This document shows, in pieces, positions 52,908-56,534 of a stretch of DNA of 56,534 nt. The notes under the pieces were generated by a model. The model was given only the letters and a program-made list of their open reading frames with translations, was not told the origin of the DNA and did not search any database. Source of the DNA: Candidatus Timburyella stercoris (GTDB lineage: Bacteria; Bacillota; Clostridia; Oscillospirales; Acutalibacteraceae); assembly GCA_904384255.1 (NCBI GenBank), contig CAJFJP010000002.1, forward strand, positions 1-56,534, read 5' to 3'. The translations under genes and the position numbers were made by a program. How positions within the stretch are numbered: the first letter of the stretch is position 1; each line of letters starts with the position of its first letter.

Positions 52908-54353
52908 TTATTTATTCTTGTTGTGCCTCTTTTTAACTGATTTTACTGTTGTATTTATAATCAAAATAAGTGTCATTACGCCTAAAACAGAGGCAGCTAT
53001 AATAATGAACATATCCTTTTCCGGTTCATCGTACCCATTGAATTTTCCGTCCTCCGATAAAAGCAATAACCCTGTCGCTATTTCGCGGCTTCCGCCGCCG
53101 GTGGGCGAGTTTACTGTATCAAGTCCGTTTTCTGAATTTATTAATATCATTTCAGTAGAACCGCCGCCGTCAAAGTTTACGGCATTTACAGCGCCTTGAG
53201 ACGCAAAAAAGTTTCCCCATTCCTCCATAGTCATTCCTACACTCGAGAATGCTTCATCTACAGTAGCTGCAATTATAGTGCCGTCCTCTTTTATGCCAAT
53301 ACCGGTTTTGGCTGTTTTTGTATTTATAATGTAATCTATAGGAGGAAAGCCCTGTTCTTCAAAGCTTTCCTCTGTCTGAACTATGCCGTTCTTTACAATC
53401 CAGTTATAAGCTCCTACACACTGAACCAAATTATTCCTGTTACAAATTATATTTTCTTTTTTGTCTATTTCATCTACGCTAAAAGTAAATTCTACAGCCA
53501 TCCCCTCGCCGGCATAAGAAATCAGATGAAAAATATCGGCTATGACAATACATCCCTCCGGTATTTCCGCCTCCAGCTCGCTGTGCAGTACTGCTTCTAT
53601 TTTCCCGTTATATGAAACGCCGGCTCTTATGTTGTCTGCGTCATTAACGCCTGACACAATATAAAGATTGCACTTATCCTTTTTTACGCCTTGAAGAGCA
53701 TTATCCTCATAATCTAAGAATTCGAGCCGGTGTTCGTCGTTTATTTTGCGTGTAAATATTGCAAGATCGGCAAATCCGCCGTAATTATGATTAAGCACAG
53801 AAGATTTTTCTGAATGAACCTTGCCGTACTTATCTGTTATTTTAATATCACATGTAATATATATGTGTCCCAAAAACGGACTGCCGCTGTCATCTACTCC
53901 AAAAACGGGAAGATTTTTTGCTTCATAGGCATAATGGGACGAGTTGTAAAGAACGCCGTCTATTATAGTGGCGTTTATGGGCGTACCGAGCGAAACCATC
54001 ATTTTGTCGTCCATCACGAACATATCGCAGTTTATTCCCGCAATTGCCGTAAGCCCGTCCTTATTCGCTGCCAGCGCCTGATCCTTTAAAAACTGCGAGC
54101 CGATAACATACCCATTAGGCAGAGTGGGAGAGATTTTGAGATTTTTTGCATCCGGAGAAATTTCCAGTATATTTACGTTGCTTTTGCCGTTTTCATCTTC
54201 AACCGCGCCTTTTTTGTATATTACGCCCTTTTTTATTGTCTTTTCAGGCTCAAAAACTGTCGCCGAGCATATAATAAATATGTATATTAAAGAAAAAATA
54301 TAACATACAGCCATTCTAAAAATTTTTGAAACATACATTTTAACTTCCTCCAT
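52908..54353 (-). CDS. Membrane-anchored phosphodiester glycosidase (NAGPA-domain) protein
   Basis: AGINCDMFVMDDKMMVSLGTPINATIIDG, AVNFDGGGSTEMI...SPTGGGSREIATGLLLL; N- and C-terminal hydrophobic segments. Confidence 0.85.
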   Translation of the reverse strand: MEEVKMYVSKIFRMAVCYIFSLIYIFIICSATVFEPEKTIKKGVIYKKGAVEDENGKSNVNILEISPDAKNLKISPTLPNGYVIGSQFLKDQALAANKDGLTAIAGINCDMFVMDDKMMVSLGTPINATIIDGVLYNSSHYAYEAKNLPVFGVDDSGSPFLGHIYITCDIKITDKYGKVHSEKSSVLNHNYGGFADLAIFTRKINDEHRLEFLDYEDNALQGVKKDKCNLYIVSGVNDADNIRAGVSYNGKIEAVLHSELEAEIPEGCIVIADIFHLISYAGEGMAVEFTFSVDEIDKKENIICNRNNLVQCVGAYNWIVKNGIVQTEESFEEQGFPPIDYIINTKTAKTGIGIKEDGTIIAATVDEAFSSVGMTMEEWGNFFASQGAVNAVNFDGGGSTEMILINSENGLDTVNSPTGGGSREIATGLLLLSEDGKFNGYDEPEKDMFIIIAASVLGVMTLILIINTTVKSVKKRHNKNK

Positions 54354-54514: not shown

Positions 54515-55849
54515 ATGAAAAAAAGTAAGTGGCTGTTGTTTAAAATTGCGTATCTGCTTGTCGCATGCGTTTTGCTGTTCTCTGTTTCTGTAAGCGCAAA
54601 CGACAAATCAGGAAACGACGGACCAAGTAAAGCATTTATTCAAAATCAGTCGGCCAGCATAGTGCAGTACAGAGGACTGCTTGATCTTACCGACGACTCG
54701 GATTACGGTGGTATGTATATTGACGAAAACGGCGTGCTTAACGTGCTTGTTGTGGATAATGCCGAAGTTCAGGCTGCGGTAAATTCCGTAAAAAGCTCAA
54801 TAAAGCAAGCCTCAGCCACCGCATTAAGTGCAGATGAGCTGTATTCAAAAGCATCCGCAGCTGAGGTTAATAGCGTGGCGGAACTTGCAAAAGCGGACAA
54901 TAAATTTGAGTATGACAAAGAAACACTGCAGAGGGCAGAAATACAGCAGATTATTATTAAACCGGCGGCATATTCTAAGGAATATTTGGATTCTATTCAA
55001 ACAACCCTTGAAGATTATATGGAGCAATTAGACATAGTGGGCATTGGAGTTGATGAAATAGACAACAGGGTTGACGTAGACATGCTTGACGTCTCTGACG
55101 AGATAATAGCTGAAATAGAAGAACTTATAGGCCAAAGCGGCATCTCCGCCTGCAGCTTTGAAGAGGTGCCGGAGCGCCCGAAAACCAATTATTCAGTAAC
55201 TAATGCATCAAGCGTACATAATGTCTTTGGAGGTTACACGCTCGGTGTAGGAGTAACAGTAGACGGCCGGCCCGGCTGGCTGATGTGCGGCCATTATTTG
55301 GAAGTTGGAGATTTTATTTATGCCACTGGATGCAACAGTCCGATAGGCAGAGTTGCAATTAAACATATGGGTATATATGGTGATTTTTCCTTCATAGAAA
55401 GAACAAGCACACAGTATACTATAACCAATAAAATTGTTGATGCCTCTGATTTAAGAAAATCATATTATTGGGGAATGTATGAAAACGGGCCGTATGTATT
55501 CAGCCAAGGCTTAAGCTGGGGCTTCCCTGTGGGCACCTATGTAGAAAAATTTGGTCAGACGACAGGAAAAACCGGAGGATTTATTAGGTATTCAAAGCAT
55601 ACAGCGACTTATACAGGAGAAGGGTCGGCTTTCAATTTAATACGTGCTACTTATAGCTCTGCTGAAGGTGACAGCGGCGGACCGGTAACTGTTTATCTGG
55701 CCGACGGCAGATATCGTACTGTGATAGGAATACATTCAGGAAGTGGCTATAACAGCATGTATGGAGGTAGCTATTCATGCTTTACAGATATGGAAGACTT
55801 AATTGAAGGAATAACATCAACGCACAATGTTCAGGCATATGCTCAATAA
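54515..55849 (+). CDS. Secreted trypsin-like (S1-fold) serine protease with N-terminal pro-region
   Basis: Signal peptide; MCGHYL (His), YGDFSF (Asp), EGDSGGPVTV (Ser). Confidence 0.85.
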   Translation: MKKSKWLLFKIAYLLVACVLLFSVSVSANDKSGNDGPSKAFIQNQSASIVQYRGLLDLTDDSDYGGMYIDENGVLNVLVVDNAEVQAAVNSVKSSIKQASATALSADELYSKASAAEVNSVAELAKADNKFEYDKETLQRAEIQQIIIKPAAYSKEYLDSIQTTLEDYMEQLDIVGIGVDEIDNRVDVDMLDVSDEIIAEIEELIGQSGISACSFEEVPERPKTNYSVTNASSVHNVFGGYTLGVGVTVDGRPGWLMCGHYLEVGDFIYATGCNSPIGRVAIKHMGIYGDFSFIERTSTQYTITNKIVDASDLRKSYYWGMYENGPYVFSQGLSWGFPVGTYVEKFGQTTGKTGGFIRYSKHTATYTGEGSAFNLIRATYSSAEGDSGGPVTVYLADGRYRTVIGIHSGSGYNSMYGGSYSCFTDMEDLIEGITSTHNVQAYAQ

Positions 55850-55869
55850 TATTTTCTGGAGGTGTATAT

Positions 55870-56232
55870 ATGAAAAAGATATTTATGCTGATAGGAATAG
55901 CTTTGACCGCCATGCTTGTGCTTGCAGGCTGCGCAGAAAAAGGCGAAAATACAGGAAATGAAAACTCGTCTTCCTCTGAGACAGCATATTCTTCTGAAGC
56001 AACATCGTCTTATTCTGCTGAATATTTGGAATCTATTCATGACAAGCTTGACCAACATATAGATGAGTTGACTATAGTTGGAATTTCCAGCGGTGGATAT
56101 GAAAATACTGTTTTGGTGGAAATGCTTGACACTTCTGATGAGATGATGTCCAAAGTAGAGGATATAATTGGTGAAGAAGCCATGAATGCCTGTGTTTTTG
56201 TGAAAGCTTACAGCTATCCTGAAGCCGAGTGA
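55870..56232 (+). CDS. Lipoprotein with a domain resembling the upstream protease pro-region
   Basis: Lipobox LVLAGC; EYLESIHDKLDQHIDELTIVGI...VLVEMLDTSDEMMSKVEDIIGEEAMNACVF vs protease EYLDSIQTTLEDYMEQLDIVGI...VDVDMLDVSDEIIAEIEELIGQSGISACSF. Confidence 0.85.
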   Translation: MKKIFMLIGIALTAMLVLAGCAEKGENTGNENSSSSETAYSSEATSSYSAEYLESIHDKLDQHIDELTIVGISSGGYENTVLVEMLDTSDEMMSKVEDIIGEEAMNACVFVKAYSYPEAE

Positions 56233-56315
56233 CTAATTTTGCAGGCGAAATAAAAACGAAAAAACGCATACCAATAACGAAAAATACGTTTATCAAGTAA
56301 TTGGGGGTGCACCTC

Positions 56316-56534
56316 ATGAAAAAGATATTTATGCTGATAGGAATAGCCTTGACCGCCATGCTTGTGCTTGCAGGCTGCGCAGAAAAAGGCGAAAATACAG
56401 GAAATGAAAACTCGTCTTCCTCTGAAGCAACATCGTCTTATTCTAAGGAATACCTTCTGTCAATTAAAGGAAAAATAGCTGCACATATGGAGGAACTTGG
56501 TATAGTTGGAGTGGGAATTGGAGAGAATGAGGTT
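56316..56534 (+). CDS. Second tandem lipoprotein of the same family, truncated by the window end
   Basis: MKKIFMLIGIALTAMLVLAGCAEKGENTGNENSSSSEATSSYSKEYLLSIKGKIAAHMEELGIVGVGIGENEV. Confidence 0.85.
   Translation, partial: MKKIFMLIGIALTAMLVLAGCAEKGENTGNENSSSSEATSSYSKEYLLSIKGKIAAHMEELGIVGVGIGENEV

What the first reader, a model, noticed from the sequence alone, without database searches (positions are those of the whole stretch)
54515..56534. Secreted trypsin-like protease followed by tandem lipoproteins made of its pro-region-like domain
Seen directly: the protease pro-region SKEYLDSIQTTLEDYMEQLDIVGIGVDEIDNRVDVDMLDVSDEIIAEIEELIGQSGISACSFEEV aligns residue by residue with the only domain of the downstream lipoprotein (SAEYLESIHDKLDQHIDELTIVGISSGGYENTVLVEMLDTSDEMMSKVEDIIGEEAMNACVF). 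A second lipoprotein starts at 56316 (SKEYLLSIKGKIAAHMEELGIVGVGIGENEV). Established: in alpha-lytic/streptogrisin-type S1 proteases the pro-region acts as foldase and tight inhibitor. Inference: the stand-alone, membrane-anchored copies may act in trans as inhibitors, self-protection factors or chaperones. That would be a toxin/immunity-like or substrate-sensing surface system.
Basis: partly seen in the sequence, partly recalled or inferred. Interest (0 to 1): 0.82.

Follow-up and report, generated by a model that had tools for sequence, protein, structure and literature searches.

The report
Lipoproteins copied from a protease's pro-domain
A Clostridia bacterium encodes a secreted alpha-lytic-type protease followed by small membrane-anchored proteins that are stand-alone copies of the part of its pro-region that should plug the active site, and relatives have reused the same module as likely inhibitors and perhaps as protease sensors.

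Summary
The 54515-55849 protease has an H260/D290/S387 triad and belongs to the alpha-lytic/streptogrisin (S1E) type, with a two-lobed pro-region. The lipoproteins at 55870-56232 and 56316-(contig end) are copies of the pro-region's C-terminal lobe only. Evidence: BLASTP 43% over 65 aa without gaps; profile-profile E 4e-8; an AF2 model whose best four PDB matches are all the alpha-lytic pro-region. A sister species has the same locus with three tandem copies. An unrelated genome has a protease followed by a lipoprotein copy of the entire pro-region. In both lineages the stand-alone proteins end 0-4 residues from where the mature protease should begin, so they keep the tail that in alpha-lytic protease lies in the active site. 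I judge membrane-anchored trans inhibitors (self-protection) most likely. Tethering, sensing and foldase roles remain open; nothing biochemical was tested. The survey also found the pro-region as ectodomain of proteins translationally coupled to ECF sigma factors, once in an operon with the protease. Stand-alone propeptide mimics are known for subtilisins and cathepsins; I found no published S1E case. New variant of a known kind.

The parts
54515..55849 (+). Secreted alpha-lytic/streptogrisin-type (S1E) serine protease, 444 aa, pre-pro-enzyme
   Evidence: ORF; triad H260, D290, S387 invariant in a 25-protease alignment; profile vs PDB alpha-lytic protease E 3e-23; AF2 model pTM 0.81, Foldseek best NAPase, TFPA and alpha-lytic protease, E about 3e-12
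54629..54820 (+). Pro-region N-lobe (YGGMYIDENGVLNVLVVDN motif), about residues 39-102; boundaries approximate
   Evidence: Conserved block in 24 protease pro-regions; AF2 helix-strand-strand-helix, pLDDT about 82-96 over residues 41-110
54953..55165 (+). Pro-region C-lobe, about residues 147-217: the module repeated in the lipoproteins
   Evidence: BLASTP to LP1; profile hit to alpha-lytic pro-region 2pro residues 79-134; AF2 pLDDT 92-96
55190..55846 (+). Mature protease domain (predicted start about residue 226)
   Evidence: Family profile position 187 corresponds to mature alpha-lytic protease residue 2 and maps to window residue 227
55857..55864 (+). Shine-Dalgarno-like TGGAGGTG; 20-bp gap between protease stop and LP1 start
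   Evidence: Read directly from sequence; no terminator-like site between the genes
55870..56232 (+). LP1: lipoprotein of 120 aa, lipobox LAGC (Cys21), acidic/Ser linker, one pro-C-lobe domain (residues 46-113) and a short C-terminal tail ending at the position of the pro/mature junction
56316..56534 (+). LP2: second lipoprotein, cut by the contig end after 73 aa; first 105 nt 104/105 identical to LP1, domain diverged (61% aa identity in the aligned part)
   Evidence: match to protease 151-181, 52%
52908..54353 (-). Divergent NAGPA (phosphodiester glycosidase) membrane protein; the same neighbour is found at the orthologous locus and at a paralogous protease locus in the sister species. Context, function in this setting unknown
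   Evidence: PF09992 E 5.8e-27; L022 and L023 copies E 1.3e-24 and 6.6e-26

Best explanation
LP1, LP2 and their relatives are stand-alone, membrane-anchored mimics of the C-lobe of an S1E protease pro-region, probably made from the same transcript as the protease. Shown: homology, fold, lipobox, tandem copies, conservation in a sister species, purifying selection, and a C-terminus at the position of the maturation site. Inferred: the cell-surface copies bind the mature protease as the cis pro-region does, put their C-terminal tail into the active site, and so hold the enzyme inactive close to the producing membrane (self-protection) while enzyme that has left the cell is active. The divergent tandem domains may tune affinity or cover more than one protease.
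For: C-lobe homology and LP1 fold with alpha-lytic pro-region as PDB ranks 1-4, Foldseek probability 0.99-1.00. Solos end at or just before the predicted pro/mature junction: LP1 aligns to residue 225 (junction 225|226); sister copies to 219, 217 and 216 (junction 220|221); the independent G1055 whole-pro-region lipoprotein to 206 (junction 206|207). In alpha-lytic protease the pro/protease junction lies across the active site (PMC2829044), and PDB entry 1boq is titled for pro-region C-terminus/active-site interactions. Same-strand 20-bp spacing with a ribosome site and no terminator-like site. Three copies in the sister species. dN/dS 0.3-0.5 in the domains. Independent case G1055: solo and neighbouring protease 34% over 208 aa, E 8e-35, next best protease 7e-12. 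Precedent: SUB1-ProM, a stand-alone propeptide mimic encoded beside subtilisin genes, is a potent inhibitor of SUB1 (PMC6993865).
Against: No binding or inhibition data and no complex model could be run. The window copies lack the N-lobe. LP domains evolve faster than the protease (LP1 46% vs protease 65-70% identity between species; dN/dS 0.5 vs about 0.16), and LP1 is no closer to its own protease than to the sister's, so there is no sign of tight pair-wise co-adaptation. A paralogous protease in the sister species has no such lipoprotein, nor do most related proteases, so the partner is dispensable in general. Related pro-region modules occur without any nearby protease, so the module can serve something else.
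Confidence: 0.45

Rival explanations
1. The lipoproteins are tethers or receptors: they bind the mature protease without the aim of inhibiting it, and hold it at the cell surface or report its presence. In some relatives the same module has become the sensor part of an ECF sigma-factor switch, much as RsiV senses lysozyme.
For: Six pro-domain membrane proteins start within or directly at the end of an ECF sigma gene (overlaps of 1-26 nt: L076, L082, L111, L114, L115, L120; sigma domains); L112, a close relative of L111, has the same arrangement. In G405 sigma, pro-domain protein and protease lie in one run of genes. RsiV is at once receptor and inhibitor of lysozyme (PMC5014341). Other anchored partners (Big_14, one with choline-binding repeats) sit beside related proteases.
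Against: The window and its sister have no ECF sigma gene beside the lipoproteins; a lipoprotein alone cannot signal inward. Several genomes with sigma-coupled pro-domains have no clear S1E protease.
Confidence: 0.22
2. The pro-region fold is a versatile extracytoplasmic ligand-binding module; the lipoproteins bind something other than this protease and the shared descent is incidental.
For: The module is fused to Cu_amine_oxidN1 (L113), Big_14 (L117) and other lipoprotein modules (L139, L024) away from proteases. Some near-complete genomes with the module lack a clear S1E protease.
Against: Solo genes beside proteases recur in at least five genera, and C-termini fall at the maturation position in two lineages. 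In the window's own genus five of six solo genes sit directly beside the protease.
Confidence: 0.18
3. The lipoproteins are trans-acting foldases that help many protease molecules fold after secretion.
For: Alpha-lytic pro-regions catalyse folding (established for the family; PMC2829044). Two related proteases lie beside lipoproteins that look alike, one with a weak trigger-factor C-domain match (L118; L083).
Against: The protease keeps a complete pro-region in cis, so a trans foldase is redundant; only the C-lobe is copied; two or three diverged copies are hard to explain for a foldase.
Confidence: 0.1
4. The lipoproteins guard against proteases of other organisms in the community (broad-specificity surface inhibitors), the home protease gene being only the source of the domain.
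For: Fast divergence of domains against near-identical signal/linker DNA (domain dN/dS 0.3-0.5); several different copies per locus.
Against: No dN/dS above 1; likely co-transcription with the home protease favours a home target.
Confidence: 0.05

Closest known systems
Alpha-lytic protease / streptogrisin pro-region (PF02983; PDB 2pro, 3pro, 4pro)
   Same: Sequence family, fold, and a C-terminal tail ending at the protease junction
   Different: There it is the N-terminal part of one zymogen; here its C-lobe is a separate, lipid-anchored, tandemly repeated gene product
Stand-alone subtilisin propeptide mimics of MEROPS I9 (P. ostreatus peptidase A inhibitor 1, yeast peptidase B inhibitor, TgMIC5, Plasmodium SUB1-ProM; PMC6993865)
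   Same: Solo propeptide-like protein; SUB1-ProM is encoded next to subtilisin genes; proposed trans inhibition
   Different: Other protease family (S8) and propeptide family; eukaryotic; not lipoproteins; inhibition shown there, not here
Propeptide-like cysteine protease inhibitors of I29 (CTLA-2alpha, crammer, BCPI; PMC4089206)
   Same: Solo prodomain evolved into an inhibitor
   Different: Papain-type cathepsin prodomains, a different fold
RsiV/SigV lysozyme receptor (PMC5014341)
   Same: Parallel for the sigma-coupled relatives: an extracytoplasmic enzyme-binding domain on an anti-sigma factor that also inhibits the enzyme
   Different: Unrelated domain, lysozyme not protease; no sigma gene in the window locus
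4hlb, 'alpha-lytic protease prodomain-like protein' DESPIG_01740 (Desulfovibrio piger)
   Same: A solved stand-alone protein with the same general fold
   Different: Weak match to LP1 (rank 37, probability 0.35); no protease context known to me

Membership tests
S1E serine protease (alpha-lytic/streptogrisin) | His-Asp-Ser triad in a chymotrypsin fold | tested here: met
   H260, D290, S387 invariant in 25 sequences; Foldseek best matches NAPase, TFPA, alpha-lytic protease
S1E serine protease (alpha-lytic/streptogrisin) | Closest solved relatives are alpha-lytic protease and streptogrisins rather than trypsins or HtrA | tested here: met
   Profile A3 vs PDB: alpha-lytic protease 3e-23, streptogrisin B 2.9e-22; metazoan trypsin-like chains about 5e-6 or weaker
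S1E serine protease (alpha-lytic/streptogrisin) | N-terminal pro-region of the Pro_Al_protease type (PF02983) | tested here: met
   Pro-region profile A6: 2pro E 3.6e-4, next hit 0.065. Pfam's own cut-off is not reached (relative L075: 16.2 bits against 23.4; not listed for the window protease)
S1E serine protease (alpha-lytic/streptogrisin) | Pro-region needed for folding and inhibits the mature enzyme | not testable with these tools
   Needs purified protein
Stand-alone alpha-lytic-type pro-domain | Homology to the pro-region by sequence | tested here: met
   (LP1 vs pro-region model E 5e-8)
Stand-alone alpha-lytic-type pro-domain | Same fold | tested here: met
   AF2 core pLDDT above 90; Foldseek ranks 1-4 are 4pro and 3pro pro-region chains, probability 0.99-1.00, though E only 0.03-0.09 and TM 0.50 on query length
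Stand-alone alpha-lytic-type pro-domain | Both lobes present | tested here: not met
   Window and sister lipoproteins have the C-lobe only; G1055 (L109) and G695 (L088) solos have both
Propeptide-like inhibitor (works like I9/I29 solo inhibitors) | Separate gene product resembling the propeptide of a neighbouring protease | tested here: met
Propeptide-like inhibitor (works like I9/I29 solo inhibitors) | Inhibits a cognate protease | not testable with these tools
   Needs an assay
MEROPS I9 (member of) | Subtilisin-propeptide family fold and sequence | tested here: not met
   No subtilisin propeptide among the top 50 PDB fold matches of LP1; best are alpha-lytic pro-regions
Bacterial lipoprotein | Signal peptide with lipobox Cys | tested here: met
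   LVLAGC, Cys21, in LP1 and LP2
Toxin-immunity pair | Protease delivered to harm rivals, partner protects producer | not testable with these tools
   No delivery or toxin-specific module seen; ordinary secretion signal only

The most novel reading that the evidence does not exclude
The alpha-lytic-type pro-region has become, across Clostridia, a general protease-recognition module acting in trans: lipoprotein arrays that restrain the cell's own S1E protease, and ectodomains of ECF anti-sigma factors that measure S1E protease outside the cell (own or foreign) by binding its active site, as RsiV does with lysozyme.
Probability: 0.22. Interest if true: 0.82.

Novelty: new variant of a known kind. 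Interest (0 to 1): 0.62.

Why it matters
Alpha-lytic protease is a textbook case of a pro-region that folds and inhibits its own enzyme in cis. Here is what looks like natural evolution of that pro-region into separate, surface-anchored proteins, in at least two independent ways, with the plug-like tail kept. If they inhibit in trans, this would be a first S1E counterpart to the subtilisin and cathepsin propeptide-like inhibitors, as far as I could find, and an answer to how producers live with a very stable secreted protease. The sigma-coupled forms would add a new signal type (protease) to ECF signalling. Each step can be tested with small soluble domains.

Tried and rejected
Copy number beyond the contig end: no other contig of the assembly carries a significant further copy. 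Two tandem 111-aa membrane proteins after the protease-like gene in G484 (L093) look like the same arrangement but are not demonstrably related (hhalign probability 4%), so they are not counted. First-look domain hits in G030, G059 and G423 were unrelated or unconvincing frames. No LP1 relative in the plasmid collection. A chance or assembly origin of the tandem was considered and rejected because an independent assembly shows three copies. Full-model Foldseek matches to NAL1 align more residues than mature S1E enzymes but with rmsd 6-10 A, so I do not read them as a match of the pro-region. Positive selection was considered for the diverged domains, but all dN/dS values are below 1 (synonymous sites are near saturation in most pairs).

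Full report
WHAT IS THERE. The window is one whole contig (G000:C2) of a 2.0-Mb, 190-contig draft genome. At its right end lie a secreted serine protease (54515-55849, 444 aa), a 120-aa lipoprotein LP1 (55870-56232) and the first 73 codons of a second lipoprotein LP2 (56316 to the contig end). The protease stop and the LP1 start are 20 bp apart with a TGGAGGTG ribosome site between them, and no terminator-like site was found between the genes. Protease residues 151-215 align to LP1 46-110 without a gap at 43% identity, E 2e-16. Shuffled lipoproteins never approach the real scores.

WHAT THE PROTEASE IS. Pfam barely sees it (Trypsin 15.5 bits, below the cut-off). A profile of 18 related proteases hits alpha-lytic protease (E 3e-23) and streptogrisin B (2.9e-22) far above other trypsins. 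The triad H260/D290/S387 is invariant in 25 sequences. Its AF2 model (mean pLDDT 79.7, pTM 0.81) matches NAPase, TFPA and alpha-lytic protease. The pro-region has two lobes: an N-lobe (YxGxYIDxxGxLVV) and a C-lobe (YSxxxL...GVDxxxNxVxV). The profile of 24 such pro-regions has the solved alpha-lytic pro-region as its only PDB hit below E 0.05 (2pro, 3.6e-4), and one member gives a sub-threshold Pro_Al_protease hit over the C-lobe. So 'alpha-lytic/streptogrisin type' is a tested statement, not only a recollection.

WHAT THE LIPOPROTEINS ARE. Each has a lipobox LAGC, an acidic/serine linker and one copy of the C-lobe. Profile-profile comparison of the genus' solo domains with the pro-regions gives E 3.7e-8, probability 95. 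The AF2 model of mature LP1 is helix-strand-strand-helix-strand with core pLDDT above 90. Among 350,542 PDB chains its best four fold matches are the pro-region chains of 4pro and 3pro, probability 0.99-1.00, although the E-values are modest (0.03-0.09) for so small a domain.

A DETAIL THAT POINTS TO FUNCTION. Mapping mature alpha-lytic protease residue 2 onto the family puts the window's pro/mature junction at 225|226. LP1's C-terminus aligns to residue 225. In the sister species the junction is at 220|221 and the three lipoproteins end at positions equivalent to 219, 217 and 216. In an unrelated genome (G1055) the stand-alone lipoprotein ends at 206, the last residue of the pro-region. The junction is predicted from an alignment and may be off by a residue or two. 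In alpha-lytic protease the junction lies across the active site (PMC2829044), so the solo proteins keep what should be the active-site tail, now ending in a free C-terminus.

RELATED LOCI. (1) Sister species G001 (a Clostridia metagenome assembly, CALYBL01): orthologous protease followed by three tandem lipoproteins (L022 8255-7081), plus a longer lipoprotein elsewhere with the same domain (L024). Its paralogous protease (L023) has no such lipoprotein, but a Big_14 protein downstream. (2) G1055 (L109, another family): protease followed by a 193-aa lipoprotein that is a copy of the whole pro-region; it is 34% identical to that neighbour over 208 aa (E 8e-35) against 7e-12 for the next protease, so this is a separate duplication. 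(3) G695 (L088): a two-lobe lipoprotein directly upstream of a protease (E 2e-8). (4) G405 (L076): ECF sigma factor, membrane protein with a C-lobe-like domain, and protease in one run of genes (the domain match is weak, E 3e-5 by the C-lobe model, and 0.008 by the pro-region model). (5) G167 (L082): protease, a gene resembling lgt (read by eye, not searched), ECF sigma, membrane protein with pro-region (E 2e-9). (6) No S1E protease nearby: L111, L112, L114, L115 and L120, where a membrane protein with a pro-region ectodomain follows an ECF sigma gene and overlaps it by a few bases. Pro-regions from proteases and these other solos match at E 7e-26. A whole-genome search for the mature S1E domain found no clear S1E protease in the sigma-only genomes; three of them are 95-98% complete, two of these giving only weak hits that I did not examine. 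If those sensors bind a protease, it is probably foreign.

BIAS AND NUMBERS. Related proteases are rare: 10 of 400 family genomes, 17 of 397 order genomes, 12 of 392 class genomes (some of those hits are solo pro-regions). Of the protease loci read, most have no pro-domain neighbour. Cases 3 to 5 were noticed because neighbours of proteases were read, so they cannot be used to estimate enrichment; the window's genus and G1055 came from whole-genome profile searches and do not carry that bias. The genomes overlap between searches.

EVOLUTION. LP1 and LP2 share 104 of the first 105 bases while their domains are 61% identical in the aligned part: recent duplication or conversion of the front part joined to a diverged domain. 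Domain dN/dS is 0.3-0.5, against 0.14-0.17 for the protease: constrained, hence probably functional, but less so. Synonymous divergence is high in most comparisons, so these are rough values.

MECHANISM. Best: membrane-anchored trans inhibitors that protect the producer (0.45). The steps shown are homology, fold, anchoring signal, gene order and tail position; binding and inhibition are inferred. Rivals: tether/receptor (0.22), unrelated ligand (0.18), trans foldase (0.10), defence against foreign proteases (0.05).

COMPARISON AND NOVELTY. Solo propeptide mimics are an established kind: I9 inhibitors including SUB1-ProM beside subtilisin genes (PMC6993865) and I29 CTLA-2-type inhibitors (PMC4089206). 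Full-text searches for an S1E or alpha-lytic counterpart, or for such a domain on anti-sigma factors, found none in the open library, which does not hold most subscription journals. A 2008 survey of prokaryotic serine proteases lists PF02983 only as a domain co-existing with protease domains in the passage seen. I therefore rate this a new variant of a known kind.

Noticed in passing
L111 4028-5358, L112 1597-2963, L114 3926-5639, L115 2181-3486, L120 1783-3683: ECF sigma factor genes coupled to membrane proteins whose C-terminal ectodomain is an alpha-lytic-type pro-region, without a protease nearby; possible protease-sensing anti-sigma factors. Perhaps more novel than the original finding.
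   Followed up: partly
L085 3231-3659, L094 238-792, L107 5151-5636, L119 3260-3898, L023 202-717, L092 4032-4940: Membrane-anchored or lipoprotein Big_14 (PF20251) Ig-like proteins sit beside related S1E proteases (in L092 with choline-binding repeats and a sub-threshold Big_14 match); in L117 (3522-5465) Big_14 and pro-region are fused. A second, alternative partner type.
   Followed up: partly
L118 4788-5825, L083 2185-3249: Two related proteases lie beside similar-looking lipoproteins, one with a weak trigger-factor C-domain match; possibly a dedicated foldase.
   Followed up: no
L022 8248-9600 (- strand): In the sister species the protease gene carries two TAG codons relative to the window (near codon 10 of that reading, at the window's W6, and at Q441); either a re-start at TTG and a harmless truncation, early decay, or assembly error.
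   Followed up: no
window 52908-54353; L022 9749-11173; L023 2717-4159: A NAGPA (phosphodiester glycosidase) membrane protein is divergently encoded beside the protease at both paralogous loci of this genus.
   Followed up: partly
L093 3891-4226 and 4399-4734: Two tandem 78%-identical 111-aa membrane-anchored proteins follow an S1E protease-like gene (pro-region and protease in different frames); not detectably related to the pro-domain.
   Followed up: yes
L139 3572-4390: A lipoprotein with a pro-region-like domain in a 6.8-Mb genome of the same phylum (G1151), with no protease in the 8 kb read.
   Followed up: no
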